A DNA stretch of 64,000 nt, from contig BOKP01000001.1 in NCBI GenBank assembly GCA_016861045.1, positions 933,529-997,528 on the forward strand. The letters run 5' to 3'. The notes beneath the pieces were generated by a model. The model was not told where the DNA came from and ran no database searches. It worked only from the letters and a program-made list of their open reading frames with translations. Shown piece by piece: positions 13,608-28,287 of the stretch (position 1 is its first letter; each line of letters opens with the position of its first letter). The position numbers were made by a program, and so were the translations under genes. Source of the DNA: Actinomycetes bacterium. Lineage in GTDB: Bacteria > Actinomycetota > Thermoleophilia > Solirubrobacterales > 70-9.

Positions 13608-13608
13608 C

Positions 13609-13866
13609 GTGGCGCGTCTCGCGGTGGTCACGCTCTACGGCCGCGCCGGCTGCCACCTCTGCGAGGAGGCGCGGGCGGGGCTCGAGGCGCTGCGCCGGGA
13701 CGGGCTCCGGTTCACGCTTTGCGAGGTCGACATCGAGTCGGACCGCGAGCTCCATCGACGGCTGCTCGAGCTGATCCCGGTGGTCGAGGTCGACGGCGCC
13801 CGCGTCAGCGAGCTCCTCTTCGACGCCGACCGCGTCCGCTCCCGGCTCGATACCTTTCCCGCGTGA
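13609..13866 (+). CDS. glutaredoxin-like (DUF836) thiol protein
   Basis: An 85-residue thioredoxin-fold protein with the redox motif GCHLCEEA (CxxC) near the N-terminus, a cis-Pro strand (ELIPVVEVDG) and no signal peptide. It matches small glutaredoxin-like/DUF836 proteins, whose exact partner is unknown. The GTG starts one base after the tsaD stop, and the last codons overlap rex (GTGA), so it is part of the same run. Pairing with the redox sensor rex hints at thiol/NADH homeostasis; this is inference. Confidence 0.85.
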   Translation: MARLAVVTLYGRAGCHLCEEARAGLEALRRDGLRFTLCEVDIESDRELHRRLLELIPVVEVDGARVSELLFDADRVRSRLDTFPA

Positions 13867-14540: not shown

Positions 14541-14544
14541 GCCC

Positions 14545-15711
14545 GTGACCCTGGCTCGCGACGAGAGCCTCGACCTCGACGCGGCGCGCGCCCGGTTCGA
14601 GGATGCGACGGACTTCACGATGGCCGTCGAGGAGGAGTTCGCCCTCGTCGATCCGGCGACGCTCGATCTCGTGCACGGCTTCGAGCGCCTGTTCGAGGAG
14701 GCGCAGGCGGACCCGGTCCTGGCCGACTCGGTCCGCGGCGAGCTGATCGACACCGAGGTCGAGATCCGCTCGGGGCGCTCGCTCGACTTCGCCGAGATGA
14801 AGGCGCGCCAGCGGCAGCGGCGGCGGCTGTTGTTCGAGCTGGCCGGTCGCGAGGGCCGGGCGCTGGCCGCCTGCGGCACCCACCCCTGGGCGAGCTATCT
14901 CGACCAGGCGATCATCGACACGCCGCACTACAACCGCCTGCGCGCCGAGCTCGGCTGGGTCGCGCAGCGCAACAACACCTGGAGCCTCCACGTCCACGTC
15001 GGCGTTCGGGGCGCCGATCGCGCGGTCGCCGTCTGCGACAGCCTCCGCAATGCGCTGCCGCTGCTGCTCGCGATCTCCGCCAACTCGCCGTTCCTCGACG
15101 GGCGCGACACCAGCCTCGCGTCGGTCCGGACCCAAATCTTCACCCGCACGTTCCCCCGCTGCGGAATCCACGAGCCGTTCGGGAGCTGGGATGCCTACGC
15201 CGGCTTCGTCGACCTGCTCGAGCGCACTCGATCGATCGTCGAGTCGACGCAGCTCTGGTGGAGCATCCGGCCCCACCACCGCTTCGGGACCGTGGAGGTT
15301 CGGATTTGCGACGCGCAGAGCGGCGGCGAGGAGTCGTTCGGCCTCGCCGGGCTGATGATCGCCGCCGTCGCCCAGGCCGCGGCCGACCACGACGACGGCC
15401 GCCTCGAGGCGCCGCTGCGGCCGCGCGAGGTCGAGGAGAACCTGTGGCGGGCGATCCGCCACGGGCTCGACGGCAGCATGATCGACTTCGGGAGCGGGGC
15501 CGAGGTCACGACCCCGTCGGCGGTCGAGGGGCTGCTCGCGTGGACCGCCCCGGCGCGCGCCCACCTCGGGATCGACCTCGGCGGCTGGGATCCGACCGGG
15601 CCGAACGGCGCCCAGCGCGCGCGTGCCGAGCTCGAGCGGGGGGGATCGGTCGCCGACGCCTACCGCGCGGCGGTCACCCTGACCGCGGACAGCTACGTCG
15701 CGGGCGGGTAA
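14545..15711 (+). CDS. YbdK-type carboxylate-amine ligase (glutamate-cysteine ligase-like)
   Basis: ATP-dependent ligase of the GCS2 family, 388 residues. Seen: [13 protein letters not shown] with the metal-binding Glu cluster, the EVEIRSG motif, [35 protein letters not shown] and [11 protein letters not shown]. coli YbdK has weak gamma-glutamylcysteine ligase activity; actinobacterial relatives may use other amino acids, so the physiological substrate is open. It follows rex by 4 bases and probably belongs to the same transcript. Its stop codon carries the -10 box of the next gene. Confidence 0.9.
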
Positions 15712-15714
15712 GGT
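15709..15714 (+). promoter_or_regulatory. -10 box (TAAGGT) overlapping the upstream stop codon
   Basis: TAAGGT contains the TAA stop of the ligase gene and lies 8 bases before the ATG at 15723, giving a leaderless or near-leaderless start for the DUF1844 gene. Confidence 0.45.
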
Positions 15715-15722
15715 CCACGGCG

Positions 15723-16163
15723 ATGAGCGAGCCGAGCGACAGGAGCGGCGGCGGGGCCGCCGAGGGCGCGGAGCAGCTCACGCCCGAGCAGGAGCAGATG
15801 CTCCGGCAGATGGAGGAGGAGATGCGGAAGGTCCGCGTCCAGGACCTCGTCGCCCAGAGCGTGGTCAGCATCATCAACCTCGCCTACCGCCGGATCGCCA
15901 AGGAGGACGAGCGCGACCTCGAGCAGGCCCGGATCGGGATCGAGGCGGTCCGCGGGCTGGTCGACCTGCTCGAGGAGGACGCTCGGCACGAGATCCGGAA
16001 CGCGCTCTCGCAGCTTCAGGTGCTCTACGCCCGGCAGGCCGGGGGCGGCGCGCCCGGTCAGCCGCCGGAGGGCGGCCCGGAGGCGCCGGCGCAGCCGCGG
16101 GACCCGGGCGCGGCGGGTGGCGCCAAGCCCCCGCCGCGGCTCTGGACCCCGGGCTCCGACTGA
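15723..16163 (+). CDS. DUF1844 domain protein
   Basis: A 146-residue protein. Residues ~25-105 match the DUF1844 pattern: a helical region starting [20 protein letters not shown], then [20 protein letters not shown] and a third helix with [11 protein letters not shown]. Both ends are low-complexity (Ser/Gly/Ala at the start, Pro/Gly/Ala at the end), probably disordered. No signal or membrane span is seen. The function of the family is unknown. Confidence 0.88.
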
Positions 16164-16217
16164 CGATCGCCGGCCCGGCGGGCCGGCACCGAAGCGCATG
16201 GCCGCCCCATCTCCGGG

Positions 16218-16223
16218 TATGCT
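16218..16223 (+). promoter_or_regulatory. -10 box (TATGCT) upstream of hppA
   Basis: TATGCT about 80 bases before the TTG start of hppA. If used, it gives a leader of roughly 75 bases containing the hairpin at 16236-16270. This contrasts with the leaderless genes around it. Confidence 0.4.
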
Positions 16224-16235
16224 GCCCCGGCTTTC

Positions 16236-16270
16236 GAGGCCGCCCCGAGCGAATCGCGGGGGGCGGCCTC
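16236..16270 (+). promoter_or_regulatory. leader hairpin upstream of hppA
   Basis: Perfect 11 bp stem GAGGCCGCCCC / GGGGCGGCCTC with a 13-base loop. No T-run follows, so it is not a standard terminator. It may stabilise the leader, act as an attenuator, or end the DUF1844 transcript. Confidence 0.5.
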
Positions 16271-16306
16271 GCTACGAGTGTCCACAGCTACGAAGGATTT
16301 CCGACC

Positions 16307-18385
16307 TTGACTGACTTCCTCACCGACAACGGGATCGTGATCGCGCTCGTCTGCGCGGCGGCCGGGGTCATCTACGGGGCGATCGTGACCAAGCGGCTGC
16401 TCGCGCTCTCGGCGGGCAACGAGCGCATGCGGGAGATCTCCGGCGCCGTCCAGGAGGGCGCCAAGGCCTACCTGAACCGCCAGTACACGATCATCGGCCT
16501 CGTCGCGATCGTCCTCGCGGTCCTGCTCGTCGTCCTCCAGGACGTAGCGACCGGCGTCGGCTTCGTCATCGGCGGGATCCTGTCCGGCGCCGCCGGCTAC
16601 ATCGGCATGAACGTCTCGGTCCGCGCCAACGCCCGCGTCGCCGAGGCGGCTCGCGGCGGCGTCCCGCCCGCGCTCGACGCCGCCTTCAAGGGCGGCTCGG
16701 TCACCGGCCTTCTGGTCGTCGGCCTGGCGCTGCTCGGCGTCGCCGGCTACTTCGGGATCCTGGTCCTGACCGGCGAGGACGACAAGGCCGCGATCGACGC
16801 CCTCGTCGGGCTCGGCTTCGGCGGCTCCCTGATCTCCGTCTTCGCCCGGCTCGGCGGCGGCATCTTCACGAAGGCCGCCGACGTCGGCGCCGACCTCGTC
16901 GGCAAGGTCGAGGCGGGGATCCCGGAGGACGATCCCCGCAACCCGGCGGTGATCGCTGACAACGTCGGCGACAACGTCGGCGACTGCGCCGGCATGGCCG
17001 CCGACCTGTTCGAGACGTACGCGGTCACCGCGGTCGCGGTGATGCTGATCGGCGTCCTCAGCTTCAACATCGACGTCGCCCGCGAGGTCGCGGTCTATCC
17101 GCTGATCCTCGGCGGCGTCGCGATCCTCGCCTCGATCATCGGCGCCCTGTCGGTCCGCAGCCGCAGCGGCAACGTCGAGGGGGCCCTCTACCGCGGCCTG
17201 ATCGTCTCCGGCCTGCTCTCGGCCATCGTCTTCTACCCGGTCACCGACTGGCTGATGTCCGATCCCCTGCGGTTCGCGGTCTCCGATCCCGAGAGCGCCC
17301 TCGCCGGGGCGTCGGTGACCGGGCTCTGGGTCTGCGCGCTGATCGGGATCGCAGTCACCGCCGGCCTGTTCGTCGTCACCGACTACTACACGTCGACCAG
17401 GTTCAGGCCCGTGAAGACGATCTCGAAGGCCTCGATCACGGGCCACGCGACCAACATCATCCAGGGGCTCGCACAGGGCTTTCAGGGCACGGCGATCCCG
17501 GCCCTGATCATCATCATCGCGATCTTCGGCGCGAACGAGATCGCGGGCATCTACGGCATCGCGATCGCCGTCATGGCGCAGCTCTCGCTGACCGGGCTGA
17601 TCGTCGCCCTCGACGCGTTCGGACCGATCACCGACAACGCCGGCGGGATCGCCGAGATGGCGGACCTGCCCGAGGACGTGCGCAACGTCACCGACCCGCT
17701 GGACGCGGTCGGGAACACGACCAAGGCCGTCACCAAGGGGTACGCGATCGGCTCGGCGGTGCTCGCGGCGCTCGTCCTGTTCGCCGCGTTCAAGATCGAG
17801 ATCCAGCTCGAGTCCGGGCTGGAGATCCTGTCCTTCGACATCAGCGAGCCGGCCGTGCTGATCGGCCTGCTGATCGGCGGGCTGATGACCTACCTGTTCG
17901 CGGCGCTGGCGATCGAGGCGGTCGGCCGGGCCGGCGGCCAGGTCGTCGAGCAGGTCCGCCGCCAGTTCAAGGAGCGGCCCGGGATCATGGAGGGGACCGA
18001 GCGTCCCGACTACGGCGGCACCGTCGCGATCGTCACCGCGGCCGCGCAGAAGGAGATGATCCTGCCGTCGCTGATCCCGATCGCCGTGCCGCTGATCGTC
18101 GGCCTGATCAGCGGCAAGGCCCTCGGCGGCCTGTTGATCGGAGTCATCGTCGTCGGCTTCTTCATGGCCGTCTCGATGACCGCCGGCGGCGGCGCCTGGG
18201 ACAACGCCAAGAAGCTGATCGAGGACGGCGCCTACGGCGGCAAGGGCTCGGAGGCCCATGCGGCATCGGTGACCGGCGACACGGTCGGCGACCCCTACAA
18301 GGACACCGCCGGCCCCGCGATCAACCCGATGATCAAGGTGGCGAACATCGTCGCGATCCTGATCATCCCGATAATCAACTTCTAG
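16307..18385 (+). CDS. hppA: K+-independent, H+-translocating membrane pyrophosphatase
   Basis: Membrane-embedded pump coupling PPi hydrolysis to proton export; 692 residues, about 15-16 membrane segments. Seen: the substrate motif [22 protein letters not shown] followed by [34 protein letters not shown], and the C-terminal [21 protein letters not shown]. The determinant segment reads [10 protein letters not shown] (~468-477): Lys and Thr occupy the two positions that are Ala and Gly in K+-dependent enzymes, so it should be K+-independent. The start is TTG 16307, with AAGGA 12 bases upstream; a start further upstream would run into the leader hairpin. Confidence 0.97.
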
Positions 18386-18390
18386 CGGGC

Positions 18391-18407
18391 AGCTCCGACC
18401 GGGAGCT
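18391..18407 (+). terminator. possible hairpin after hppA
   Basis: AGCTCC-GACCG-GGAGCT, beginning 6 bases after the hppA stop. No T-tract is seen, so its role in termination is uncertain. The rest of 18408-18628 holds nothing I can support. Confidence 0.25.
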
Positions 18408-18628
18408 CCAGGCTTTCGCCCGTCCGCCTCGGTCGGCCCCCCGCGGCGGGGCCCGGCGGCGCCTGGACCACGGCATCCCCTGCGGGGCTGCCGAGAATGG
18501 TGCGCCGCCTGCCGGTCGGCGGGGGTCGCCGCCTTCGAGCGGGCGATCTCGACGAGATCGTCGTCGCTCTCGGCCCCGGCGCGAGCCCACGCCGGCTTCG
18601 GCCGATTGCTCTCTGCCATCCTCGGATC

Positions 18629-18865
18629 GTGGCCTCGCCGCGGGAACCGAAGCGGGAGCGGACGCTGTACGAGATCTCGAGCAGCTTCTTCGCCGCGCTC
18701 GTGATCGTGTTCGCCGTGGCGGGGATGCTCGTCGTCGGCCTCGGGGCCGACGGGCCGGGCTCGCCCGAGTTCGCGATCTGCTCGCTGTTCCTGCTGCTCG
18801 GGGCGGGCCGGCTCTGGCTCGGTCTGGCGCGCGGCAACGAGGGGGCGGAGGAGCGGCGGCGCTGA
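18629..18865 (+). CDS. small membrane protein paired with APC permease (copy 1)
   Basis: A 78-residue protein from GTG 18629 with a basic N-terminus, two hydrophobic spans (FFAALVIVFAVAGMLVVGL and FAICSLFLLLGAGRLWLGL) and an acidic/Arg tail. No named family was recognised. Its length, two-span layout and the LGAGRLWL ending resemble the 64-residue protein at 20847 (IGAARLYL). Each of the two precedes one APC/USP permease by 10-35 bases. The open frame continues upstream to 18497, but without hydrophobic or motif support. An accessory subunit role is inference. Confidence 0.6.
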   Translation: MASPREPKRERTLYEISSSFFAALVIVFAVAGMLVVGLGADGPGSPEFAICSLFLLLGAGRLWLGLARGNEGAEERRR

Positions 18866-18883
18866 TCGCTCTTGCCGCGGTCG

Positions 18884-18889
18884 TATAGT
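18884..18889 (+). promoter_or_regulatory. -10 box (TATAGT), leaderless type
   Basis: TATAGT, a near-consensus -10, lies 10 bases before the ATG of the first APC/USP permease. Confidence 0.55.
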
Positions 18890-18899
18890 CGCGCCCCGC

Positions 18900-20792
18900 A
18901 TGGCGCACCGGGTACCGCGCGACGAGTCCCTGCAGAAGGTCCATGGCGCCGGCGCGCTGTTCAGCGCCGCGTACGGGAACGTCGGCTCGTCGATCTACTA
19001 CGCGCTCGGCGTCGTCGCCGCCTTCGCGCTCGGCCTCACCCCGGTCGCGTTCATGATCTCGGGGCTGATCTTCGTCTGCACGGCCGCCACCTACGTCGAG
19101 GGAACGGTCATGCATCCGGAGGCCGGCGGCTCCGCCAGCTTCGCCCGTCGCGCGTTCAACGAGCTCGTCAGCTTCGTCGCCGGCTGGGGGCAGATGCTCA
19201 ACTACATCATCACGGTCGCGATCTCGGCCTTCTTCGTCCCCCACTACCTCGGCGTCTTCTGGGAGCCGCTGCGGGAGAGCCCCGGCGACATCGTCGGCAG
19301 CATCGCCCTGGTCGCCGCCCTCGCCGCCCTCAACGTCAAGGGGACGCAGGAGTCGTCGCGGCTCAACCTCGTGCTCGCCGTCGGCGACGTCGCGACGCAG
19401 GTCCTGCTCGCCGTCGTCGGCCTCGCCCTCGTCTTCAGCCCCGACGTCCTGATCGGCAACATCGACCTCGGCGTCGCGCCGACCTGGGGCGACTTCGCGC
19501 TCGGGATCGCGCTCGGGATGATCGCCTACACGGGGATCGAGACGATCTCGAACATGTCCGAGGAGGCGGTCGAGCCGGAGCGCACGGTGCCGCGCGGCGC
19601 CGGGCTCGTCATCCTCGCGGTGATCGGCCTCTACGCGCTGCTGCCGATGATCGCGCTCTCGGCGATGCCGGTGACGCTCGGCCCGGACGGCTACACGACC
19701 GAGCTCGGGACGATTTATGCCGGCGATCCGGTGCTCGGCATCGTCGAGAACCTCGGCCTCGGGGCGGGGATCACGGACGTGCTCCGTGCCTACGTCGGCG
19801 TCCTCGCCGCCGTGATCCTCGTGATCGCGACCAACGCGGGAATGATCGGCGTCTCGAGGCTGACCTTCTCGATGGGCCAGCACCGCCAGCTCCCGGAGCG
19901 GCTGCGCCAGGTCCACCCGCGGTTCCGGACGCCGCACGTCGCGATCATCACCTTCTCGGTCATCGCCGCGATCGCGATCCTGCCGGGCCAGGAGGAGCTG
20001 CTGGCGACGATGTACTCGTTCGGAGCGATGCTCTCGTTCACGATCGCGCACGCCGCGATCGTCCGGATGCGTCGCCGCTTCCCCGATGCCGAGCGCGGGT
20101 GGACTCCCCCGGGAGGTGTCCGGATCGCCGGCGTCGACGTGCCGCTGACGGCCGTCCTCGGTGGCCTCGGGACGTTCGCGGCGTGGGTCGTCGTGATGGC
20201 GATGAACCCGGTCACGATGGCGATCGGGCTCGGCTGGATGGCGTTCGGCCTGGCCCTCTACCTGCTCTACCGCCGCCACCACGACCTGCCGATCGCCGAG
20301 ACCGTCCAGGTCGTCAGGCCCGAGCCCCTCGACGTCGAGGAGGTCGAGTACAGGTCCGTGCTCGTCACCTTCGAGGACGATCCGTTCTCGGAGCAGACGA
20401 TCGGCACCGCGGTGCAGCTCGCGGCCCGCAAGAGCCGCGGCATCCACGTCCTCTCGATGCTCAACGTCCCCGCGCACCTGCCGATCGACGCGCCGCTGCC
20501 GGCCGAGCAGGGGAGGGCACAGGAGAAGATCGAGCGGGCGAAGCTGATCGGCGGCCGCCGCGTGACCGGCCACGTGCTGCGGGTGCGGCCGGGGCAGGCG
20601 CCGAAGGCGATCATCGACGAGGCCCGGGACATCCAGGCCGTGGCGATCGTCATGCAGCTCACCTACCGCGACGGAACGCCGCTCTACGGGAAGACGCTGC
20701 AGGGGGTGCTCGCCAAGCGGCCCTGCCGGATCATCGTCGCCGCGAACCCGGCCGCGGCGGCCGGGCCGACGCGGGTCCCCGCCCCCGCCTGA
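18900..20792 (+). CDS. APC-superfamily permease with C-terminal universal-stress (USP) domain, copy 1
   Basis: A 630-residue membrane transporter. Residues ~15-465 form an APC-fold permease with about 12 spans (GNVGSSIYYALGVVAAFALG opening helix, IETISNMSEEAVEPERTVPRG, RLTFSMGQHRQLP). Residues ~485-620 form a cytoplasmic USP-like domain (YRSVLVTFEDDPFSEQTIGTA... RIIVAANP). The same APC+USP layout occurs in the K+ importer KimA and in some amino acid permeases, so the substrate could be an amino acid or K+. The neighbouring RCK proteins make cation transport or c-di-nucleotide control worth testing. Start ATG 18900 with a TATAGT box 10 bases upstream. Confidence 0.88.
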   Translation: MAHRVPRDESLQKVHGAGALFSAAYGNVGSSIYYALGVVAAFALGLTPVAFMISGLIFVCTAATYVEGTVMHPEAGGSASFARRAFNELVSFVAGWGQMLNYIITVAISAFFVPHYLGVFWEPLRESPGDIVGSIALVAALAALNVKGTQESSRLNLVLAVGDVATQVLLAVVGLALVFSPDVLIGNIDLGVAPTWGDFALGIALGMIAYTGIETISNMSEEAVEPERTVPRGAGLVILAVIGLYALLPMIALSAMPVTLGPDGYTTELGTIYAGDPVLGIVENLGLGAGITDVLRAYVGVLAAVILVIATNAGMIGVSRLTFSMGQHRQLPERLRQVHPRFRTPHVAIITFSVIAAIAILPGQEELLATMYSFGAMLSFTIAHAAIVRMRRRFPDAERGWTPPGGVRIAGVDVPLTAVLGGLGTFAAWVVVMAMNPVTMAIGLGWMAFGLALYLLYRRHHDLPIAETVQVVRPEPLDVEEVEYRSVLVTFEDDPFSEQTIGTAVQLAARKSRGIHVLSMLNVPAHLPIDAPLPAEQGRAQEKIERAKLIGGRRVTGHVLRVRPGQAPKAIIDEARDIQAVAIVMQLTYRDGTPLYGKTLQGVLAKRPCRIIVAANPAAAAGPTRVPAPA

Positions 20793-20832
20793 GCGGGGCC
20801 GTGGCCGCCGCGGTGCCGGCGTGCGGACGGCC

Positions 20833-20838
20833 TACAAT
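20833..20838 (+). promoter_or_regulatory. -10 box (TACAAT), leaderless type
   Basis: TACAAT lies 8 bases before the ATG of the small membrane protein at 20847. Confidence 0.55.
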
Positions 20839-20846
20839 CGCCGCCG

Positions 20847-21041
20847 ATGGCGTCCCGGCAGCGGATCGGCACGATCGGAACGAAGGTGCTGTCGTCGCTG
20901 ATCCTCGCGCTCGGCGTCGTCATCGTCGTCCGCACCGTCGCCGCCGGCGGCGGGCCGCTGTCGGTCGGAGTCCTGCTCGGCGTCGTCTTCGTCGCGATCG
21001 GCGCGGCCCGGCTCTACCTCGTCAACCGGCGGCCCGCTTGA
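20847..21041 (+). CDS. small membrane protein paired with APC permease (copy 2)
   Basis: A 64-residue protein with a short basic N-terminus (MASRQR) and two hydrophobic spans (VLSSLILALGVVIVV and SVGVLLGVVFVAIGAARLYLV). No known family was recognised. It resembles the product at 18629 in size, topology and the GA[AG]RL[WY]L end, and sits 10 bases before the second APC/USP gene. It has its own TACAAT promoter box. It may be a subunit or regulator of the permease; this rests on repeated adjacency only. Confidence 0.65.
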   Translation: MASRQRIGTIGTKVLSSLILALGVVIVVRTVAAGGGPLSVGVLLGVVFVAIGAARLYLVNRRPA

Positions 21042-21051
21042 GGCGGCACCG

Positions 21052-22995
21052 GTGAGCGAGCGCCGGGTGGCGCGGCCGGCGCTCGGCCGGCGCTTTCTCG
21101 GCATGCCGTGGCTGTGGGCCGTCGCCCATTCAGCGGTCGCGTTCTCGGTCTACTACTCGCTCGGCGTCGTCGCCGTCGATGCCCTGGCGCTGACGCCCGC
21201 CGTCTTCGCGATCACCGGGCTGATCTACGTCCTGACGACGATGACCTACATGGAGGGAGGGGCGATGTTCCGCGAGCGCGGCGGCTCGAACACCCTCGCC
21301 CGCCACGCCTTCAACGAGCTCGTCAGCTTCATCGCCGGCTGGGCGATCCTGATCGACTACGTGATCGTGATCGCGCTCGCCGCGGTCACCGTGCCGCACT
21401 ACCTCGAGCCGATCTCGGGCGGGCTCGCCTCCGGCGGCGGCGAGCAGGTGATCGCCGTCGCCGTCGTCCTCGCCGTTGCCGCGATCAACATCGTCGGGTA
21501 CACCGGAAGCCGTCGCCAGGGCGCTCTCGTCGCCCTCACCGGCGCCGATCTGCTGCTGCAGTTCCTGCTCATCGTCGTCGGCGCGGTCGTGGTCTGGGAC
21601 CCGGGCGCCCTGACCGGGTCGCTCGACGCGTTCGGCCTGCCCGGCATCGGCGACCTCGCCACCGCGCTGGTCGTCTCGATGGTGGCCCTCGCCGGGATCG
21701 AGGCGGCATCGGATCTGGCCCCGGACCTTGCCTGGCGGCGCGACGACCTGCGCCGCGTCCTCCGGGTGGGGACTCTCGTGGTCCCCTTCGTCTACGTCGG
21801 AATGTCGCTCGTCGCGCTCATGGCGCTGCCCGTGGTCGCCGGCCCGGACGGGCCGACGACGGCGCTGGCGACGACGTTCGAGGACGCGCCCGTCCTCGGC
21901 GTCACGTCGGCGCTCGAGCCGGCCTGGCTCTCCGAGGCCTTTCAGTGGGCGGTCGTCGCGATCGCGCCGCTGATCCTCTTCTTCGCGGCGAACGTGACCA
22001 TGCTCGGGCTCTCGCGCCACATCTACGTGCTCGCCACCAACCGCCAGATCCCGAGCTGGCTCGGAAAGCTCGGGGGCAGTCGCTCGACCCCGCACGTGGC
22101 GATCCTGATCGCGTCGGCGTTCGCGATCGGGCTCGTGCTCCCCGGCGACATCGAGCTGCTCGCCGCCGTCTTCGCCTTCGGGGCGACGCTGGCGATCTCG
22201 ATCGCGCACCTGTCGCTGATCAGGCTCCGGTTCGTCCAGCCCCGGCGCGAGCGGCCGTTCACGGTCCCGGCCGGAATCCGCCTTCGCGGCGCCGTGATTC
22301 CGGTGCCGGCGGTGATCGGGCTGCTGCTCACCGCCGCCGGGTTCGCCTCGATCGTGCTCGTCCACGGCGCCGCGCTCGCCGTCGGCGGCGGCTGGATGCT
22401 GTTCGGCCTCGTCGCCTACTTCGTCTATCGCCGGGCCTTCGAGGGGCTGTCGCTGACCGCCCGCGTCTCGGTGCCCGAGCAGGCGCTGCTTAAGCATGAG
22501 CCCGATGTCGAGCTCGACAGCATCCTCGTGCCGGTGCACGGGACGACGAAGCTCGACGACGACATCGTCTCGACCGCGTGCCGGCTGGCCGAGTCGAACC
22601 CGGCCGAGGGCGAGAGCGCCCCGCGGCTCGAGCTCCTCTACGTGATCGACCTCCCGCTCACGGTCCCGATCGCGGGACCGCTGCCGGCCGCTCGCGTCGT
22701 CGCCGCCGAGGAGGCCCTCGCCCGCGCTCGCGAGGTTGCCGCCGAGTACCCGGGGGTCGAGGTCGACAGCGACTACGTCCCCGCCCGCAACGTCGGCGAG
22801 GCGATCGTCGAGCGCGCCCGCCTGGACGGGGTCGAGGCGATCATCGTCGGCGGCGAGCCCCCGAGCCTGGTCCGCGGCGGCGCCGTCCTCGGCGGCGTCC
22901 GCGGCTCGAGGCCGGCCGAGATCGGCCCGATCAGCGAGTACGTGCTCAAGAACGCTCCCTGCCGGGTCCTGCTCACCGCTCCGCCGGCCGAATAA
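21052..22995 (+). CDS. APC-superfamily permease with C-terminal USP domain, copy 2
   Basis: A 647-residue paralogue of the gene at 18900 with the same two-part plan: an APC permease (~1-470; AVAFSVYYSLGVVAVDALALTP, MTYMEGGAMFRERGGSNTLARHAFNELVSF in pieces, LSRHIYVLATNRQIPSWL) and a USP-like C-terminal domain (~485-645) that starts LDSILVPVHGTTKLDDD and ends CRVLLTAPP. Conserved FNELVSF(I/V)AGW in both copies supports recent common origin. GTG 21052 follows the small membrane gene by 10 bases. The next genes encode RCK proteins. Substrate unresolved (amino acid, polyamine or K+). Confidence 0.87.
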   Translation: MSERRVARPALGRRFLGMPWLWAVAHSAVAFSVYYSLGVVAVDALALTPAVFAITGLIYVLTTMTYMEGGAMFRERGGSNTLARHAFNELVSFIAGWAILIDYVIVIALAAVTVPHYLEPISGGLASGGGEQVIAVAVVLAVAAINIVGYTGSRRQGALVALTGADLLLQFLLIVVGAVVVWDPGALTGSLDAFGLPGIGDLATALVVSMVALAGIEAASDLAPDLAWRRDDLRRVLRVGTLVVPFVYVGMSLVALMALPVVAGPDGPTTALATTFEDAPVLGVTSALEPAWLSEAFQWAVVAIAPLILFFAANVTMLGLSRHIYVLATNRQIPSWLGKLGGSRSTPHVAILIASAFAIGLVLPGDIELLAAVFAFGATLAISIAHLSLIRLRFVQPRRERPFTVPAGIRLRGAVIPVPAVIGLLLTAAGFASIVLVHGAALAVGGGWMLFGLVAYFVYRRAFEGLSLTARVSVPEQALLKHEPDVELDSILVPVHGTTKLDDDIVSTACRLAESNPAEGESAPRLELLYVIDLPLTVPIAGPLPAARVVAAEEALARAREVAAEYPGVEVDSDYVPARNVGEAIVERARLDGVEAIIVGGEPPSLVRGGAVLGGVRGSRPAEIGPISEYVLKNAPCRVLLTAPPAE

Positions 22996-22998
22996 GAT
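22993..22998 (+). promoter_or_regulatory. -10 box (TAAGAT), leaderless type
   Basis: TAAGAT overlaps the permease stop codon (TAA) and lies 6 bases before the ATG of the first RCK protein. Confidence 0.5.
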
Positions 22999-23004
22999 CG
23001 CCCC

Positions 23005-23454
23005 ATGCTGATCCTGATCGTGGGATGCGGGCGCGTCGGCTCCTCCGTGGCGCGGGCGATGCTGGCCGAGGGCCACGAGGTCTCCTGCCTCGACGAGGAC
23101 CCGGAGTCCCACGCCCGGCTCGAGCTCGGGCTCGACACCTCCTGGGAGGATGCCGGCGGCCAGTTCACGGTCGGCACCGGCCTCGAGATCGACGCCCTGA
23201 CGACGGCCGGGATCGAGCGTGCCGACGTCTTCGTCGCCTCGACCGACGGCGACAACACGAACATCGTCATCGCCCAGATCGCGAAGCGGCGGTTCGACGT
23301 CGAGACGGTGATCGCCCGCATCCTCGATCCCTACCGGGCCGAGTGGTACGCGACCCAGGGCCTGACGACCGTCTGCCCGACCCGGACGGCGATCGAGATG
23401 CTCGAGCTGACCCTGCGCGAGGTCGCGACCAAGAAGGCGGGGACGAGTGGCTGA
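23005..23454 (+). CDS. RCK_N (TrkA-N) regulatory protein, short form
   Basis: A 149-residue NAD/nucleotide-binding subunit of a K+ transport regulator. Seen: GCGRVGSSVARAM with the acidic end of strand 2 (CLDEDP), IERADVFVASTDGDNTN, and RILDPYRAEWYATQGL. Only the N-terminal RCK domain is present; the C-terminal ligand-binding RCK_C domain is missing. It overlaps the full-length partner by 8 bases, so the two probably form a hetero-oligomer. No TrkH/KtrB channel is seen in the window. The adjacent APC/USP permeases may be the target, by inference. Confidence 0.88.
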   Translation: MLILIVGCGRVGSSVARAMLAEGHEVSCLDEDPESHARLELGLDTSWEDAGGQFTVGTGLEIDALTTAGIERADVFVASTDGDNTNIVIAQIAKRRFDVETVIARILDPYRAEWYATQGLTTVCPTRTAIEMLELTLREVATKKAGTSG

Positions 23455-24160
23455 GCAGCCCGGCGGCGGCGACTACATGCTCGTCGTCGGCGGCGGCAAG
23501 GTCGGCTGGAACCTCGCCCGGGAGCTGATCGACAAGGGCAACGAGGTGACGGTGATCGAGTCCGATCGGGAGCGCTTCCTGACCATCGAGCAGGAGCTCG
23601 AGCACCGCGTCCACTACGGCGACGCGTCCGAGCTCTGGGTCCTCGAGCGGGCCGGGATCGCGCGGGCGGCGATGGTCATCGCCGTCACCGGAGACGACGA
23701 GGACAACCTCCTGATCTGCCAGGTGGCCAAGGACAAGTACGGGGTCGAACGCGTGATCGCGCGGGTCAACAACCCCCGCAACCGCCAGCACTTCGAGTTG
23801 CTCGGGGTGAAGCCCTACGTTTCCGCGACTGATTTGATCCTGCGCCTGATCGAGCGTGAGGTGCCGCGCTACGGCCTCGTCCACCTGCTCGACCTCGCCG
23901 ACGCCGGGATCGAGATCATCGACCTGCTGATCGGCGAGAAGGCGCAGGTCGTCGGCCGCCGTCTCGACGAGCTCGAGATGCCGAAGGGGAGCCTCCTGAT
24001 CAGCGTCATGCGCGAGGGTCGTGGCTTCGTGCCGACGCCCGACACCGTGCTGGAGCCTGGCGACGAGGTCCTCGCCGTGCTCGACCCCACCATCGAGGAG
24101 GAGCTGACCGGCTACCTCGGCCTCGAGGAGGGGAAGGGCGAGCCCGCCCCCGAGCCCTAG
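23447..24160 (+). CDS. RCK_N + RCK_C (TrkA-type) potassium transport regulator
   Basis: A 237-residue two-domain regulator. The N-terminal RCK domain has GGGKVGWNLARELIDKG and VIESDRERF; MVIAVTGDDEDN and RVNNPRNRQHF follow. The C-terminal RCK_C domain (~150-230, AQVVGRRLDELEMPKGSLLISVMR, PGDEVLAVL) would bind a ligand such as c-di-AMP in relatives. The GTG start lies 8 bases inside the upstream RCK gene. In the family these rings gate K+ channels in response to NAD(H), ATP or c-di-AMP. Confidence 0.92.
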   Translation: MAEQPGGGDYMLVVGGGKVGWNLARELIDKGNEVTVIESDRERFLTIEQELEHRVHYGDASELWVLERAGIARAAMVIAVTGDDEDNLLICQVAKDKYGVERVIARVNNPRNRQHFELLGVKPYVSATDLILRLIEREVPRYGLVHLLDLADAGIEIIDLLIGEKAQVVGRRLDELEMPKGSLLISVMREGRGFVPTPDTVLEPGDEVLAVLDPTIEEELTGYLGLEEGKGEPAPEP

Positions 24161-24163
24161 CCG

Positions 24164-25396
24164 GTGGCCCGCCGCGCTGTCGACTTCCTGCTCGTCGGCG
24201 GCGGCGTCGCCGCCGCCCACTGCGCGATCGAGCTGCGCCGCCGCGGCGCCGAGGGCTCGATCCTGCTCTGCGGTCGCGAGCCGGAGCCGCCGTACGAGCG
24301 GCCGCCGCTCTCGAAGGAGTACCTGCGGGGCGAGACGGGACGGGCGGACGCGCTCGTGCGATCGCGCGACTGGTACGCCGACGCCGGCGTCGAGCTCGCG
24401 ACCGGGGTCAGTGTCGTCTCCATCGAACCCGACCGGCGCCTGGCGAAGCTCCAGGGCGGCGAGGAGGTCGGCTTCGGGCGGGCGCTGCTGGCGACCGGAG
24501 CGATGGTCAACATCCTCCGCGTCGACGGCGCCCAGCTCGAGGGCATCCACTACCTGCGGGCGTTCGGCAACGCCGACTCGATCCGCGACGACCTCGAGGG
24601 ACGCGAGCACGTCGTCTGCGTCGGCGGCGGCTACATCGGCGTCGAGGTCGCCGCCTCGCTGACGGCGATGGGCACGCGCTGCACCATCGTCGAGATCGAG
24701 CCGGTGATCCTCGCCCGCGCCTTCGGGGAGGAGGTGGGTCGCTGGTTCGGCGAGCTGGTGGCCGCCAACGGCGTCGCGGTCCGCACCGGCGAGACGGTCG
24801 CCGCCTTCGAGGGCGACGAGCGGGTCGAGGCCGTGCTGACGGAGAGTGGAAGCGTGATCGACTGCGACGCGGTCGTCGTCGGCGCCGGCGTCCGGCCCGA
24901 CACGGCCCTGGCCGGCCGGGCCGGGCTCGACGTCGGTGACGGCATCCTCTGCGACGGCCGCCTCGAGACCTCGGCTCCCGGCGTCTTCGCCGCCGGTGAC
25001 TGCTGCAACTTCGCGAGCGAGCTGCGCGGCGGCCGTGTCCGGGTCGAGCACTGGGACGTCGCCCTGCAGCAGGGCCGCCACGCCGCCCGGGCGATGCTCG
25101 GCGACGAGGCTCCCTATCGCGTCGTGCCGTACTTCTTCAGCGACATCCACGACTGGGCTTCGCTCGAGTATGTGGGCGGCGGCCCTGAATGGGACGAGGT
25201 CCTGTGGCGCGGCGACCGCGACTCGGGCGGGTTCTCGGCCTGGTACGTCGGCGCCGGCAGGCTCGTCGGGGCGCTGTCGGTGGGGCGGCCGGCCGACCTG
25301 ATCCCGGCCCGGGCCATGATCGAATCGGGCGAGCCCGTCGGAGAGCGGCGCGAGGCCATCGCCGACCCCGACGCCGACCTCGACTGGCTCGCCTAG
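24164..25396 (+). CDS. FAD-dependent pyridine nucleotide reductase (ferredoxin reductase/AIF-like)
   Basis: A 410-residue flavoprotein. Seen: N-terminal FAD Rossmann motif FLLVGGGVAAAHCAIELRR; the PPYERPPLSKEYLRGE loop typical of rubredoxin/ferredoxin reductases of oxygenase systems; the NAD(P)H Rossmann motif VVCVGGGYIGVEVAASL; the second FAD motif PGVFAAGDCCNF; and a C-terminal domain with YFFSDIHDWASLEYVG. No redox-active CxxC is seen, so it does not belong to the thioredoxin reductase or dihydrolipoamide type. No ferredoxin or P450 partner is adjacent. GTG 24164 begins 4 bases after the RCK stop, suggesting co-transcription. Confidence 0.9.
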   Translation: MARRAVDFLLVGGGVAAAHCAIELRRRGAEGSILLCGREPEPPYERPPLSKEYLRGETGRADALVRSRDWYADAGVELATGVSVVSIEPDRRLAKLQGGEEVGFGRALLATGAMVNILRVDGAQLEGIHYLRAFGNADSIRDDLEGREHVVCVGGGYIGVEVAASLTAMGTRCTIVEIEPVILARAFGEEVGRWFGELVAANGVAVRTGETVAAFEGDERVEAVLTESGSVIDCDAVVVGAGVRPDTALAGRAGLDVGDGILCDGRLETSAPGVFAAGDCCNFASELRGGRVRVEHWDVALQQGRHAARAMLGDEAPYRVVPYFFSDIHDWASLEYVGGGPEWDEVLWRGDRDSGGFSAWYVGAGRLVGALSVGRPADLIPARAMIESGEPVGERREAIADPDADLDWLA

Positions 25397-25418
25397 CAGC
25401 TAATCTCAGCGGCGGCCC

Positions 25419-25489
25419 TGCGGGCTGGTGTAATGGCAACACGCCTGTCTCTGGAACAGGTATTCGGGGTTCGAGTCCCTGGCCCGCAG
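25419..25489 (+). tRNA. tRNA-Gln (anticodon CTG)
   Basis: A cloverleaf can be drawn: acceptor TGCGGGC / GCCCGCA, D-arm region TGGTGTAATGGCAACA, anticodon stem CCTGT / ACAGG with loop CTCTGGA (anticodon CTG at 25451-25453, reads CAG), T-arm CGGGG-TTCGAGT-CCCTG, and discriminator G. The 3' CCA is not encoded, so it must be added after transcription. The sequence closely follows bacterial tRNA-Gln. Confidence 0.96.
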
Positions 25490-25598
25490 CTCACGCCGGT
25501 CCGCGGCCGGGCCGGGGGCCGGCCCCCGCGTTGCCGCCGCCGGGCCGGGATCGGTCGGACATCCGTCCGGACGCGGTCCAGCGGGCGGGGTGGGGCGC

Positions 25599-25604
25599 TA
25601 ACCT
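25599..25604 (+). promoter_or_regulatory. -10 box (TAACCT), leaderless type
   Basis: TAACCT lies 7 bases before the ATG at 25612 and supports that start against the longer open frame upstream. Confidence 0.5.
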
Positions 25605-25611
25605 GCGGGCG

Positions 25612-26322
25612 ATGAGAGGGACGGCGGCCAGGCTGTGCGCCGTGGCCATCGGCGCGATCGCGATCTGGAGCGCCGGCTGCGGCGACGACGACTCGACCAC
25701 CGCGACGGTGACCCCGGCTACGGATGCGACCGCCGGCGCGGTCTCGACCGAGGAGTTCATCACCGCGGCCGATGCCCGCTGCGCGGAGGCGAACGCGGCG
25801 ATCGCGAACCTGGGCACGGAGGGAAGCGCGAGCGCGACGACGGTCCAGCAGGAGCTCGACATCACCGAGGAGACCCTGAAGGGGCTGAAGGCGCTCGGCA
25901 GCCCCGACGACCCGGACGGGTCGCTCGCCGACTACTACGCGGCGGTCAAGCAGGAGATCGCGCTCCTCGGCCAGGAGCAGAGCGCGCTCGCGACCGGGGA
26001 CACGGTCGCCGCGCAGGCGGCCACGTCCCAGCTCGAGCAGGCTCGAGGCGATGCCCGCGAGGCCGCCGAGGCCTTCGGCTTCGAGGAGTGCGGCCAGGAG
26101 GGCGCGCCGATCGACGCCGGCGACAGCACATCGGGGGCGCCGCCGGCGCCGACCACGACCGCGCCGGTGACGCCGACCACGACCGCGCCGGTGACGCCGA
26201 CCACGACCGCGCCGGTGACGCCGCCGCCCTCCGGAGGCACCTCCGGGACCGGCACCGGGGGCGGGACCGGGACCGGAGGCACCGGCGGCGGCTCTTCGGG
26301 CGGCATCAGCCCCGGCGGCTGA
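25612..26322 (+). CDS. predicted lipoprotein with TTTAPVTP repeats
   Basis: A 236-residue protein. Residues 1-22 form a signal peptide with a lipobox-like WSAGC, so it is probably lipid-anchored. Residues ~45-165 form a helical domain opening EEFITAADARCAEANAAIANLG with a second Cys near the end (FGFEECGQ), a layout shared with the lipoprotein at 31545 (ADALCADS...LEVCGA). A three-fold PTTTAPVTP repeat and a Gly/Thr/Ser-rich tail follow. The longer frame upstream crosses the tRNA and was rejected. Function unknown; an extracytoplasmic helical domain with paired cysteines is what can be seen. Confidence 0.75.
   Translation: MRGTAARLCAVAIGAIAIWSAGCGDDDSTTATVTPATDATAGAVSTEEFITAADARCAEANAAIANLGTEGSASATTVQQELDITEETLKGLKALGSPDDPDGSLADYYAAVKQEIALLGQEQSALATGDTVAAQAATSQLEQARGDAREAAEAFGFEECGQEGAPIDAGDSTSGAPPAPTTTAPVTPTTTAPVTPTTTAPVTPPPSGGTSGTGTGGGTGTGGTGGGSSGGISPGG
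26152..26223 (+). repeat. three perfect 24 bp tandem repeats inside the lipoprotein gene
   Basis: Unit ACCACGACCGCGCCGGTGAC followed by GCCG, repeated three times without a mismatch. It encodes TTTAPVTP three times. In-frame copy-number change is likely between strains. Confidence 0.9.
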
Positions 26323-26331
26323 CCCCTCCCG

Positions 26332-28287
26332 TCAGGCCGCCGCGCTGCCGGCCCAGCTCCCGTAGAGGCGCGCGTAGGCGCCGTCGCGCGCGAGCAGCTC
26401 CTCGTGGCTGCCGCTCTCGACGATCTCGCCGTGCTCGAGGACGACGATCAGGCTCGCCCGCCTGATCGTCGAGAGCCGATGGGCGATCACGATCGCGGTG
26501 CGGCCGGCGAGCAGCCGCTCGAGGCCACGCTCGATCAGGCGCTCGGTGCGGACGTCGACGTTCGACGTCGCCTCGTCGAGGATCAGGATCCGCGGCTTCG
26601 CGAGCAGCGCCCGCGCGAAGGCGACGATCTGCCGCTCGCCGGCCGACAGGGAGGAGCCGCGCTCGCCGACCTCGGTCCCGAGCCCGTTCGGGAGCGCTTC
26701 GAGGAGGTCGGCGCCGCCGACCGCGATCATCGCCGCGGCGATCTCGTCGCGGCCGGCGCCGGGGCGGCCGAAGGCGACGTTGTCGGCGACCGTGCCGCTG
26801 AACAGGAAGCCCTCCTGGGGGACGATCCCGAGACGGCTGCGGAGCGCCGCGGAGTCGAGCTCGCGGACGTCGAGGCCGTCGATCCTGATCCGGCCTCGCT
26901 GCGGGTCGTAGAAGCGGGCGACGAGCTTGGCCAGCGTGGACTTGCCGGCACCGGTCTCGCCGACGAGCGCGATCGTCTGTCCCGGGAGGACGCGGAGATC
27001 GACGTCCCGAAGCGCCCAGTCCTCCTCGCGCCGGGGGGCGTCGCCATATCCGAACCAGACCCCTTCGAGGTCGATCGCGCCGCGGATCTCGCCCGGGTCG
27101 ACCGCGTCGGGGCGGTCGACGAGGTCGGGCTCGGTGTCGAGCAGGTCGAAGATCTTGTCGAGGGCGGCCATCCCCTGCTGGTAGGTCGTGTAGAGCTGGC
27201 TGATCTGCTGGATCGGGTCGAAGAACGTCTGCAGGTAGCCGACGAAGGCGACGAGGATGCCGATCTCGACGTGGCCCTCGACGACCTGATGGCCGCCGAA
27301 GAGCAGGATCGCGGCGGTGCCGACCGCCGACAACAGCTCGACCGCCGGGAAGTAGGAGGCGTTGAGGTAGACGGTCCGCATGTTGGCGGAGCGGTTCTCC
27401 TCGTTCAGGACCGCCATCTCGCTCAGGTGGCGCGGCTCCTGGCCGAAGCTGCGCACGACGCGAACCCCGCTCAGGCTCTCCTGCAGGTACGCGGTGATGT
27501 TCGCGATCTTCTCCCGCGTCAGCCGGTAGGCGCTGGCGGAGGCGATCCGGAAGACGATGCTGCCGATCGCCAGCAGCGGGAAGGTCAGGAACGTGATCAG
27601 CGCGAGCTGGACGTCGATCGCGAGCAGGATGATGACCACCCCGACCAGGGTCAGGACGCTCGAGACCATCGTCACGATGCCGTCGGTGACGAGCGTGTCG
27701 AGCGCCTGCACGTCGTTGGTCATCCGCGAGATCAGCACCCCGGGCCGGTTGCGCGTGTAGAACCCCAGCGACATCGCCTGCAGGTGCACGTAGATCCGCT
27801 CCCGGAGGTCCTGCAGCGCCCGCTGCCCGACCCAGCCGACGAGGTAGGTCTGGACGTAGGTCGCGGCCCAGTAGACGGCGGCGGAGACGAGGAACGCGAC
27901 GACGATCAGGGTGAGCGCGTCGAGGTCGCCGGGCGTGATCCCCTCGTCGATCGCGAGCCCGGCGAGATAGGGGGGAGCGAGCGCGGCGGCGGTGGCGACG
28001 ACGAGCGCGAGGAGCATCGAGGCGACCCGGAACCGGTAGGGGCGGAGGAGGCCGAGCAGCCACCTGACCTTGCGCCCGCGGTCGTCCTCGCCGCGGATCG
28101 TCCTCCAGACGGCCTTGGCGAGCAGCCAGGCGTCGCCGATCGGCGCCCGCGTCTCCGACTCGCGGGCCTCGTCCTCGCGCGCCAGCCCCGGATCGGCCTC
28201 GGGCCTCCCTGCGCCCGGCTGCTCGCCGCCGACCGCCCGTCCGGCCCGTCGACTCCGACCCCCGCCCTCCATCCTCCGACCTCTCAC
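26332..28287 (-). CDS. ABC exporter half-transporter, canonical Walker B subunit
   Basis: A 651-residue type IV ABC exporter with an extra ~65-residue charged N-terminus, a six-span membrane domain (~75-370) and an ATPase domain. Seen: Walker A LVGETGAGKSTLAKL, Q-loop VPQEGFLFSGTV, signature LSAGERQIVAF (departing from LSGGQ), Walker B ILILDEATSNVD with the catalytic Glu, and H-loop IAHRLSTI. The partner at 28284 has Asp for this Glu and a standard signature. Such complementary degeneration defines heterodimeric exporters with one active site. GTG 28287 overlaps the partner's stop (GTGA). Substrate unknown (drug/lipid type). Confidence 0.93.
   Translation of the reverse strand: MRGRRMEGGGRSRRAGRAVGGEQPGAGRPEADPGLAREDEARESETRAPIGDAWLLAKAVWRTIRGEDDRGRKVRWLLGLLRPYRFRVASMLLALVVATAAALAPPYLAGLAIDEGITPGDLDALTLIVVAFLVSAAVYWAATYVQTYLVGWVGQRALQDLRERIYVHLQAMSLGFYTRNRPGVLISRMTNDVQALDTLVTDGIVTMVSSVLTLVGVVIILLAIDVQLALITFLTFPLLAIGSIVFRIASASAYRLTREKIANITAYLQESLSGVRVVRSFGQEPRHLSEMAVLNEENRSANMRTVYLNASYFPAVELLSAVGTAAILLFGGHQVVEGHVEIGILVAFVGYLQTFFDPIQQISQLYTTYQQGMAALDKIFDLLDTEPDLVDRPDAVDPGEIRGAIDLEGVWFGYGDAPRREEDWALRDVDLRVLPGQTIALVGETGAGKSTLAKLVARFYDPQRGRIRIDGLDVRELDSAALRSRLGIVPQEGFLFSGTVADNVAFGRPGAGRDEIAAAMIAVGGADLLEALPNGLGTEVGERGSSLSAGERQIVAFARALLAKPRILILDEATSNVDVRTERLIERGLERLLAGRTAIVIAHRLSTIRRASLIVVLEHGEIVESGSHEELLARDGAYARLYGSWAGSAAA

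What the first reader, a model, noticed from the sequence alone, without database searches (positions are those of the whole stretch)
18629..24160. Duplicated small-membrane-protein plus APC/USP permease units next to RCK regulators
Two units of the same plan (two-span peptide ending GA[AG]RL[WY]L, then a ~630-residue APC permease with a cytoplasmic USP domain) are followed by a short and a full RCK protein. RCK rings normally gate K+ channels and no TrkH is present. Combined with the KimA-like domain plan, this suggests a K+ or amino-acid transporter under RCK/USP nucleotide control.
Basis: partly seen in the sequence, partly recalled or inferred. Interest (0 to 1): 0.5.

Follow-up and report, generated by a model that had tools for sequence, protein, structure and literature searches.

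The report
TrkH-less potassium-transport-type operon with RCKs
A soil-type actinobacterium with no standard potassium importer gene found in its genome keeps two paired membrane permeases, a tiny membrane protein and two RCK regulators in one conserved gene cluster that probably moves potassium, which would mean that the RCK switches known from potassium channels also control a quite different type of transporter.

Summary
The cluster is real: small two-span ORF, APC-USP permease (APC1), small ORF, APC-USP permease (APC2), RCK-N-only protein, full RCK, packed like one operon. It is a conserved Solirubrobacterales module: 55 of 58 named loci with enough flank keep APC1-APC2-RCKs-RCKf, and 76 of 76 APC1-APC2 gaps hold a two-span ORF. 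The upstream peptide was seen only in the window's genus. TrkH, Kup, KdpA and KimA were not found in the own genome, and these two are its only strong TrkA_N hits. APC1 keeps the non-acidic K+-site residues of KimA and its proton-coupling Glu, but has Asn where KUP/KimA have the essential Asp. Outside the class, 17 of 39 fetched RCK regions hold a KimA-type protein and 11 TrkH; in M. tuberculosis the neighbour Rv2690c shares a transposon phenotype with ceoB (PMC12216072). Best reading: TrkH-independent K+ (monovalent-cation) transport of the KimA plan under RCK control, with an altered ion site. Against: profiles are nearer to amino-acid APCs than to KimA, and D36N abolishes uptake in KimA. 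No transport was tested. New variant of a known kind.

The parts
18629..18865 (+). SP1, 78-aa two-span small membrane protein, GTG start (seen in own genus only)
18900..20792 (+). APC1: 630-aa APC-superfamily permease with C-terminal USP-like domain; N27, Y34, N101, T105, S109, T211, E214, Y372 at the KimA-type ion site
20847..21041 (+). SP2, 64-aa two-span small membrane protein; a two-span ORF is in 76 of 76 APC1-APC2 gaps examined
21052..22995 (+). APC2: 647-aa APC-USP paralogue of APC1; D102 (KimA D117 position) in 72 of 72
23005..23454 (+). RCKs: TrkA_N-only RCK protein, GxGxxG motif intact
23447..24160 (+). RCKf: full RCK protein (TrkA_N + TrkA_C), GxGxxG motif intact
24164..25396 (+). 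ferredoxin-reductase-like flavoprotein, probable last gene of the operon (peripheral, kept in 24 of 43 loci)
16307..18385 (+). membrane pyrophosphatase (H_PPase), frequent upstream neighbour (29 of 59 loci), not shown to be part of the system

Best explanation
The cluster encodes a K+ (monovalent-cation) transport system that does without TrkH. APC1 and APC2 are LeuT-fold permeases with cytoplasmic USP-like domains, built like the K+/H+ symporter KimA; they probably assemble as a heteromeric pair through the USP domains with the two-span peptide SP2 as a small membrane subunit. APC1 would carry the ion site (N27, T105, T211, Y372, with Y34 as outer gate) and E214 would be the proton-coupling residue, as E233 is in KimA. 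The N-only and full RCK proteins would form the cytoplasmic ring that reads a nucleotide (NAD(H) or ATP/ADP) and sets transport activity, doing for an alternating-access carrier what TrkA/KtrA do for TrkH/KtrB. Shown by computation here: gene order and its conservation, domain composition, no TrkH/Kup/KdpA/KimA found in the own genome, conservation of site residues, KimA-type proteins beside homologous RCK pairs in other Actinomycetota. Inferred: substrate, direction, heteromeric assembly, role of SP2, RCK ligand and direct contact.
For: Site residues: APC1 has the equivalents of KimA Y43, T121, S125, T230, N237 and Y377 in 81 of 81 sequences and E233 as Glu 78 / Asp 3. The 80 named loci were fetched with patterns NVGSSIYY and [GA]M[IV]AYTGI, so the TM1 and some TM6 columns are biased; 46 of 62 class permeases fetched without patterns (the window's own and some genomes counted twice) show Y[GD]N[VI][GS]SSIYY. 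The other five APC permeases of the own genome and GkApcT lack the set. Kup TM1 FGDIGTSPLY aligns with APC1 YGNVGSSIYY. Linkage: 75 of 98 class genomes with both listed hits have APC and RCK within 6 kb; 55 of 58 named loci. Elimination: own genome and its sister G180 lack TrkH, Kup and KdpA; no KimA-level score among its 7 AA_permease_2 hits, APC1 being the best at 55 bits; 9 of 15 own-family genomes lack all three families. Partner swapping: of 39 RCK-centred regions outside the class 17 hold a KimA-type protein, 11 TrkH, 2 another APC, 9 none of these; three KimA motifs complete in 18 of 19 KimA-type rows. Print: S. venezuelae KimA-like Vnz_27465 and RCK_C protein Vnz_27460 (PMC10117811, passages; adjacency inferred from the tags); M. 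tuberculosis insertions in ceoB and the adjacent Rv2690c share a rifampicin phenotype (PMC12216072, passages); deletion of ceoBC makes a low-K+ reporter slightly more sensitive (PMC6375644, passages). Structure: KimA 8b71 Z 41.8 over 513 residues of APC1, ApcT 40.7 over 412. Tree: APC1, APC2, KimA, Kup on one side, amino-acid APCs on the other, SH-aLRT 99.
Against: KimA D36 is essential and D36N abolishes uptake (PMC6994465, passages); APC1 has Asn there in 81 of 81 (or, in the sequence-only register, a variable residue) and APC2 of this order mostly A/S/V/T (64 of 72). Profile comparison puts APC1 much nearer to amino-acid APCs (E 2.5e-64) than to KimA (7e-20), with no significant match to Kup. 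Best PDB sequence match of APC1 is a CAT homologue (KimA not listed at E 1e-3); Foldseek puts the CAT homologue first and KimA fourth; a second KimA entry, 6s3k, scores only Z 37.5. With the KimA profile an amino-acid-type permease of the genome (L009, 25 bits) outscores APC2 (22.5). The tree split carries long-branch warnings. 15 of 65 class genomes without TrkH/Kup/KdpA also lack APC1, so something else can supply K+; KimA-type genes were not counted there. The own genome has a lone TVGYG channel (L095) and a second Ion_trans_2 hit. 23 of 98 genomes have APC and RCK apart, 21 of them on different contigs. [quoted passage not shown]
Confidence: 0.55

Rival explanations
1. An amino-acid (or other small-solute) APC transporter pair whose activity is tuned by RCK proteins sensing K+, osmotic or NAD(H) state; RCKs act on a non-K+ carrier.
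For: Closest families by profile are amino-acid APCs, Pfam/NCBIfam names are amino-acid permease, best PDB sequence matches are amino-acid transporters, and there is no acid at the D36 position of either permease.
Against: TM1 reads GSS (APC1) and AFS (APC2), not the GxG seen in GkApcT and own_L007 (its role in backbone binding is recalled); T105, S109, Y34 and Y372 match KimA/Kup and not the amino-acid APCs; homologous RCK pairs sit with KimA-type proteins or TrkH in 28 of 39 regions.
Confidence: 0.25
2. The RCK pair serves an unlinked K+ channel (such as the TVGYG protein at G000:C3) and its place beside the permeases is operon convenience.
For: RCK domains classically act on channels or TrkH (general knowledge); two Ion_trans_2 hits exist in the own genome and one carries TTVGYGD.
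Against: The pair follows the permeases in 55 of 58 loci and in several class families; homologous pairs sit with KimA-type proteins or TrkH in other classes.
Confidence: 0.1
3. A K+ exporter/antiporter or a K+-Cl- type cotransporter: an Asn/Thr site without acid, as in KCC, whose K+ is held by main-chain carbonyls of Asn131, Ile132, Pro429 and Thr432.
For: KCC4 binds K+ without an acid (PMC13294203, passages); N27 and T211 in 81 of 81 APC1 (columns partly selected); NKCC1 and KCC chains appear among full-length structural matches.
Against: NKCC1 TM domain Z 34.0 is below KimA and many amino-acid APCs; E214, the KimA proton residue, is kept; residue equivalence to KCC was not computed.
Confidence: 0.1

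Closest known systems
KimA (B. subtilis K+/H+ symporter, KUP family; PDB 6s3k, 8b70, 8b71)
   Same: LeuT-fold core plus cytoplasmic USP-like domain; Y43, T121, S125, T230, E233, N237, Y377 equivalents kept in APC1
   Different: D36 is Asn in 81 of 81 APC1 and D117 is Asn in 74 of 81 (Thr 6, Ser 1; Asp in L092 and Val in some other class families); two paralogues in tandem plus SP2; RCK genes linked; HNQS segment absent (0 of 81 APC1, 0 of 72 APC2)
CeoB/CeoC with the adjacent Rv2690c of M. tuberculosis, and Vnz_27460/Vnz_27465 of Streptomyces (RCK pair + KimA-type protein)
   Same: RCK genes next to an APC-fold USP-domain permease; no TrkH in the 17 fetched regions of this type
   Different: one full KimA-type permease with Asp at the site, divergent from the RCK genes in 16 of 17 regions; both RCKs full-length; here two permeases, SP2, an N-only RCK and one apparent transcription unit. 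That Rv2690c itself is KimA-type is inferred from unnamed relatives, not tested on the M. tuberculosis sequence
TrkAH / KtrAB
   Same: RCK proteins as cytoplasmic regulators of K+ transport
   Different: no TrkH/KtrB; the membrane partner would be a LeuT-fold carrier
CAT/ApcT-type amino-acid permeases (GkApcT, APC-USP proteins)
   Same: AA_permease_2 core, closest by overall profile, some with USP domains
   Different: substrate-site motifs of TM1, TM3 and TM10 differ; no RCK linkage known to me (recalled, not searched)

Membership tests
KUP/KimA K+ symporters | Asp at KimA D36 / Kup D23 in TM1 | tested here: not met
   Asn in 81 of 81 APC1 in the structure/Kup register, variable residue in the sequence-only register; APC2 of this order mostly A/S/V/T; Glu (YGE or YDE) in 15 of 16 APC2-type proteins of the fetched class regions, the 16th being from the own order
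KUP/KimA K+ symporters | T121, S125, T230, E233, Y377 and outer-gate Y43 | tested here: met
   APC1 only: 81 of 81 except E233 (78 Glu, 3 Asp); APC2 keeps E233 in 69 of 72 and D117 in 72 of 72 but not T121/S125
KUP/KimA K+ symporters | USP-like cytoplasmic domain after TM12 | tested here: met
   Pfam Usp above cut-off in both; KimA 8b71 aligned over 513 residues, Z 41.8
KUP/KimA K+ symporters | Pfam K_trans (PF02705) match | tested here: not met
   no K_trans match for APC1/APC2 at E 1; B. subtilis KimA has none at E 0.1 either, so not decisive
KUP/KimA K+ symporters | K+/H+ symport activity | not testable with these tools
   needs uptake assays
Trk/Ktr systems | TrkH/KtrB membrane subunit | tested here: not met
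   0 of 1 own genome; 0 of 15 own-family genomes
RCK (TrkA/KtrA/CeoBC) regulators | TrkA_N Rossmann fold with GxGxxG and acidic end of strand 2 | tested here: met
   both proteins; among relatives GxGxxG in all RCKf rows not gapped there (56-58 of 64) and 64 of 66 RCKs (2 gapped)
RCK (TrkA/KtrA/CeoBC) regulators | TrkA_C domain | tested here: inconclusive
   present in RCKf, no match in the 149-aa RCKs
Amino-acid APC permeases | AA_permease_2 core | tested here: met
   shared with KimA
Amino-acid APC permeases | GxG motif in TM1 | tested here: not met
   GSS in APC1, AFS in APC2 versus GTG/GAG in GkApcT and own_L007

The most novel reading that the evidence does not exclude
Across Actinomycetota RCK pairs have been moved between TrkH channels and LeuT-fold KimA-type carriers; in Thermoleophilia this became a heteromeric machine (two permeases, one two-span subunit, an N-only plus a full RCK) whose K+ site has lost its essential Asp and works through an Asn/Thr/Tyr site, and in mycobacteria and Streptomyces the unexplained 'Trk without TrkH' (CeoBC) uses a KimA-type protein (Rv2690c in M. 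tuberculosis) as its membrane part.
Probability: 0.4. Interest if true: 0.75.

Novelty: new variant of a known kind. Interest (0 to 1): 0.55.

Why it matters
RCK proteins are understood as gates of channel-like pores. A conserved system with RCKs fixed beside KimA-plan carriers would be a case of RCK control of an alternating-access transporter, and it makes an open question directly testable: what the membrane subunit of the 'Trk' (CeoBC) system of mycobacteria is. It would also give a natural D-to-N variant of the KUP ion site to study.

Tried and rejected
Riboswitch: no Rfam riboswitch in 13000-27000 at E 1 (only a tRNA and a miRNA model far below its cut-off). Promoter/terminator scan: nothing above chance. 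c-di-AMP control through RCKf: published RCK_C motif in 0 of 64 (aligned stretches, some cut short). TrkH as hidden partner: not found in the own family. Mechanism of SP2: Pfam gave only sub-threshold hits. Fold search cannot separate KimA from amino-acid APCs by the membrane core alone. Class-wide statistic (APC1-like in 50 of 65 genomes lacking TrkH/Kup/KdpA versus 75 of 134 others, Fisher p 0.005) is not corrected for relatedness and is given little weight. Literature: the nine searches gave no paper that names these APC-USP permeases as K+ carriers, or Rv2690c as KimA-type, in what I saw (listings, abstract starts and passages; no paper was read whole); PMC12216072 does list Rv2690 with the Trk genes.
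Full report
What is there. Six ORFs run in one direction from 18629 to 24160: SP1 (78 aa), APC1 (630 aa), SP2 (64 aa), APC2 (647 aa), RCKs (149 aa) and RCKf (237 aa), with gaps of 34, 54, 10 and 9 bp and an 8-bp overlap between the RCK genes. Pfam gives AA_permease_2 and Usp for both permeases, TrkA_N without TrkA_C for RCKs, TrkA_N and TrkA_C for RCKf. A ferredoxin-reductase-like gene starts 3 bp after RCKf; a membrane pyrophosphatase ends 243 bp before SP1. APC1 and APC2 are 36% identical.

It is a conserved module. Of 58 with at least 4 kb downstream, 55 keep APC1-APC2-RCKs-RCKf; the exceptions are L159, L169 and L224. Pyrophosphatase lies within 2.5 kb upstream in 29 of 59, the ferredoxin-reductase-like gene downstream in 24 of 43. 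In a separate sample of 199 class genomes, 98 have listed hits to both APC1 and RCKf, and in 75 these lie within 6 kb; of the other 23, 21 are on different contigs and 2 on the same contig (8.6 kb and about 150 kb apart). Many of these are fragmented assemblies, but one genus of family f5 seems truly to hold them apart.

The small protein. Each of 76 loci with a second permease downstream has a two-span ORF in the gap, 75 with the glycine-rich motif, consensus around TLAxGGGPxSxGVxxGxLFxAxGxGRL. No Pfam family reaches its cut-off for the four SP2-type rows tested.

No canonical K+ importer found. The own genome (2.7 Mb, 97% complete) has no match to TrkH, Kup or KdpA. Among its seven AA_permease_2 hits APC1 is the most like KimA (55 bits; L009 25, APC2 22.5), against about 1145 for two actinomycete rows that helped to build the profile. 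RCKs and RCKf are its only strong TrkA_N hits (73 and 102 bits); three more just pass the cut-off (23.9-24.9 bits) and one falls below (by eye L003 and L004 look like dehydrogenases and L006 like adenosylhomocysteinase, names recalled; L005 not identified). It has two Ion_trans_2 hits, one a TVGYG channel without RCK. In the own family (15 genomes) TrkH is in 0, Kup above cut-off in 4, KdpA in 3 (one a 50-position fragment), and 9 have none of the three.

TrkH as hidden partner. In 9 of the 20 fetched class regions TrkH lies near the cluster; in those 9 a separate long RCK ORF (445-837 codons open, 305-396 bits) is next to TrkH. The RCKs/RCKf pair therefore goes with the permeases.

Ion-site anatomy. 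KimA holds K+ with D36, T121 and Y377, uses Y43 as probable outer gate and E233 for proton coupling; D36A/N, Y43A and E233A/Q abolish uptake, D117A/N/E does not, T230A is like wild type (PMC6994465, passages). Aligned to KimA, APC1 has N101/Y102/T105/S109 in TM3, T211/E214/N218 in TM6 and Y372 in TM10; in 81 sequences T105, S109, T211, N218 and Y372 do not vary, E214 is Glu 78 / Asp 3, N101 is Asn 74 / Thr 6 / Ser 1. For TM1 two registers compete. Sequence profiles pair APC1 'ALFSAAYG' with KimA 'ALSSVAYG'; the structural alignment starts at APC1 21 with KimA 30, an offset of 9 that, if it holds along TM1, puts N27 on D36 and Y34 on Y43, and Kup FGDIGTSPLY falls on APC1 YGNVGSSIYY. In neither register is there an acid. 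APC2-type proteins of other class families read YGE or YDE here (15 of 16; the 16th is from the own order) and keep D117, whereas the window's order has lost the Glu. The 80 named loci were fetched with patterns NVGSSIYY and [GA]M[IV]AYTGI, so conservation at those columns is partly by selection; 46 of 62 class permeases fetched without patterns carry the YGN form. The five other APC permeases of the genome and GkApcT do not have the set.

Family position. A tree of 75 rows puts APC1, APC2, KimA and Kup on one side of a branch and amino-acid APCs on the other (SH-aLRT 99), with long-branch warnings. Profile comparison says otherwise on closeness: APC1 against amino-acid APCs E 2.5e-64, against KimA 7e-20, Kup not significant. 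Direct BLASTP to KimA gives 23% identity over 557 residues, E 2e-12 for a one-sequence database. AlphaFold models (mean pLDDT 87.3 and 81.8): in VIA-align two KimA chains lead for APC1 (8b71 Z 41.8 and 8b70 40.9 over 513 and 529 residues, rmsd about 13, I presume because the domains are swung), ApcT 40.7 over 412, and KimA 6s3k only 37.5; for APC2 KimA 8b71 and BasC tie at 38.4. Foldseek ranks a CAT homologue first and KimA fourth. So the plan and site are KimA-like, the overall sequence is nearer to amino-acid APCs; I do not file APC1/APC2 as KUP members.

Evidence from other Actinomycetota. RCKf-like proteins (E 1e-20) are in 295 of 396 phylum genomes, but APC1 hits below 1e-60 are confined to the class except for one, G472. 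In 39 RCK-centred regions outside the class, chosen by me from listed hits, 17 hold a KimA-type protein (divergent from the RCK genes in 16; about 3 kb away in L126), 11 TrkH, 2 another APC, 9 none. Three KimA motifs are complete in 18 of 19 KimA-type rows, which include B. subtilis KimA and L082. In print, S. venezuelae has KimA-like Vnz_27465 and an RCK_C protein Vnz_27460 whose RCK_C domain did not bind c-di-AMP (PMC10117811, passages). In M. tuberculosis, insertions in ceoB and the adjacent Rv2690c both enhance survival in rifampicin (PMC12216072, passages). CeoBC is called the Trk K+ uptake system; TrkH and TrkG occur in none of the four papers in which I looked for them. Deleting ceoBC made a low-K+ reporter slightly more sensitive but gave no growth defect in low K+ (PMC6375644, passages). 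That Rv2690c is KimA-type is my inference from unnamed relatives.

How it most likely works. Two KimA-plan permeases, with SP2 in the membrane, form the transport unit; the RCK pair forms a nucleotide-sensing ring beneath it. GxGxxG motifs with an acidic residue at the end of strand 2 are kept in both RCKs, which by general knowledge of RCK domains fits NAD(H) or ATP/ADP binding. The c-di-AMP motif of RCK_C (0 of 64 RCKf) and the HNQS segment of KimA (0 of 81 APC1 and 0 of 72 APC2) are missing, so c-di-AMP control is unlikely. The loss of D36 is the main difficulty: the site must use another chemistry. KCC4 shows that K+ can be held without an acid (PMC13294203, passages). I put 0.55 on K+ transport under RCK control, 0.25 on an amino-acid carrier under RCK control.

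Verdict. A real, conserved operon, a new variant of the RCK-plus-carrier arrangement, with a specific and testable ion-site puzzle and a useful link to the Trk (CeoBC) system of mycobacteria.

Noticed in passing
16307-18385: Membrane pyrophosphatase gene is a frequent upstream neighbour of the cluster (29 of 59 loci); possible energetic link not followed.
   Followed up: partly
24164-25396: Ferredoxin-reductase-like flavoprotein 3 bp after RCKf, conserved in 24 of 43 loci; together with a Rex-like ORF at 13719-14540 (identity recalled, not tested) it may point to redox/NADH sensing.
   Followed up: partly
L215, L221, L226: Three public MAG records titled Bifidobacterium breve carry this Solirubrobacterales cluster: probably mislabelled records.
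   Followed up: no
L082:576-2870: In class genome G110 a KimA-type gene (41% to KimA over the match) lies upstream of the APC1-APC2-RCK cluster.
   Followed up: partly
L133, L134, L135: In three genomes of other families a short+full RCK pair (full one 44-51% to RCKf) follows short ORFs weakly like APC1/APC2 (49-66 bits); possibly a more distant version of the system.
   Followed up: no
L095:1483-3246: Lone TVGYG K+ channel-like protein in the window's genome, without a TrkA domain match.
   Followed up: partly
L118, L120, L127, L131, L132, L136, L151-L153: RCK pairs with none of TrkH, Kup, KimA or APC1/2 profiles matching in the fetched 13-16.5 kb: their membrane partner is unknown.
   Followed up: no
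L089, L100-L102, L105 (family f5, genus g42): Genomes of a genus with a single APC1-type match that lies away from the RCK hit; L089 shows APC1 alone in 14 kb.
   Followed up: no
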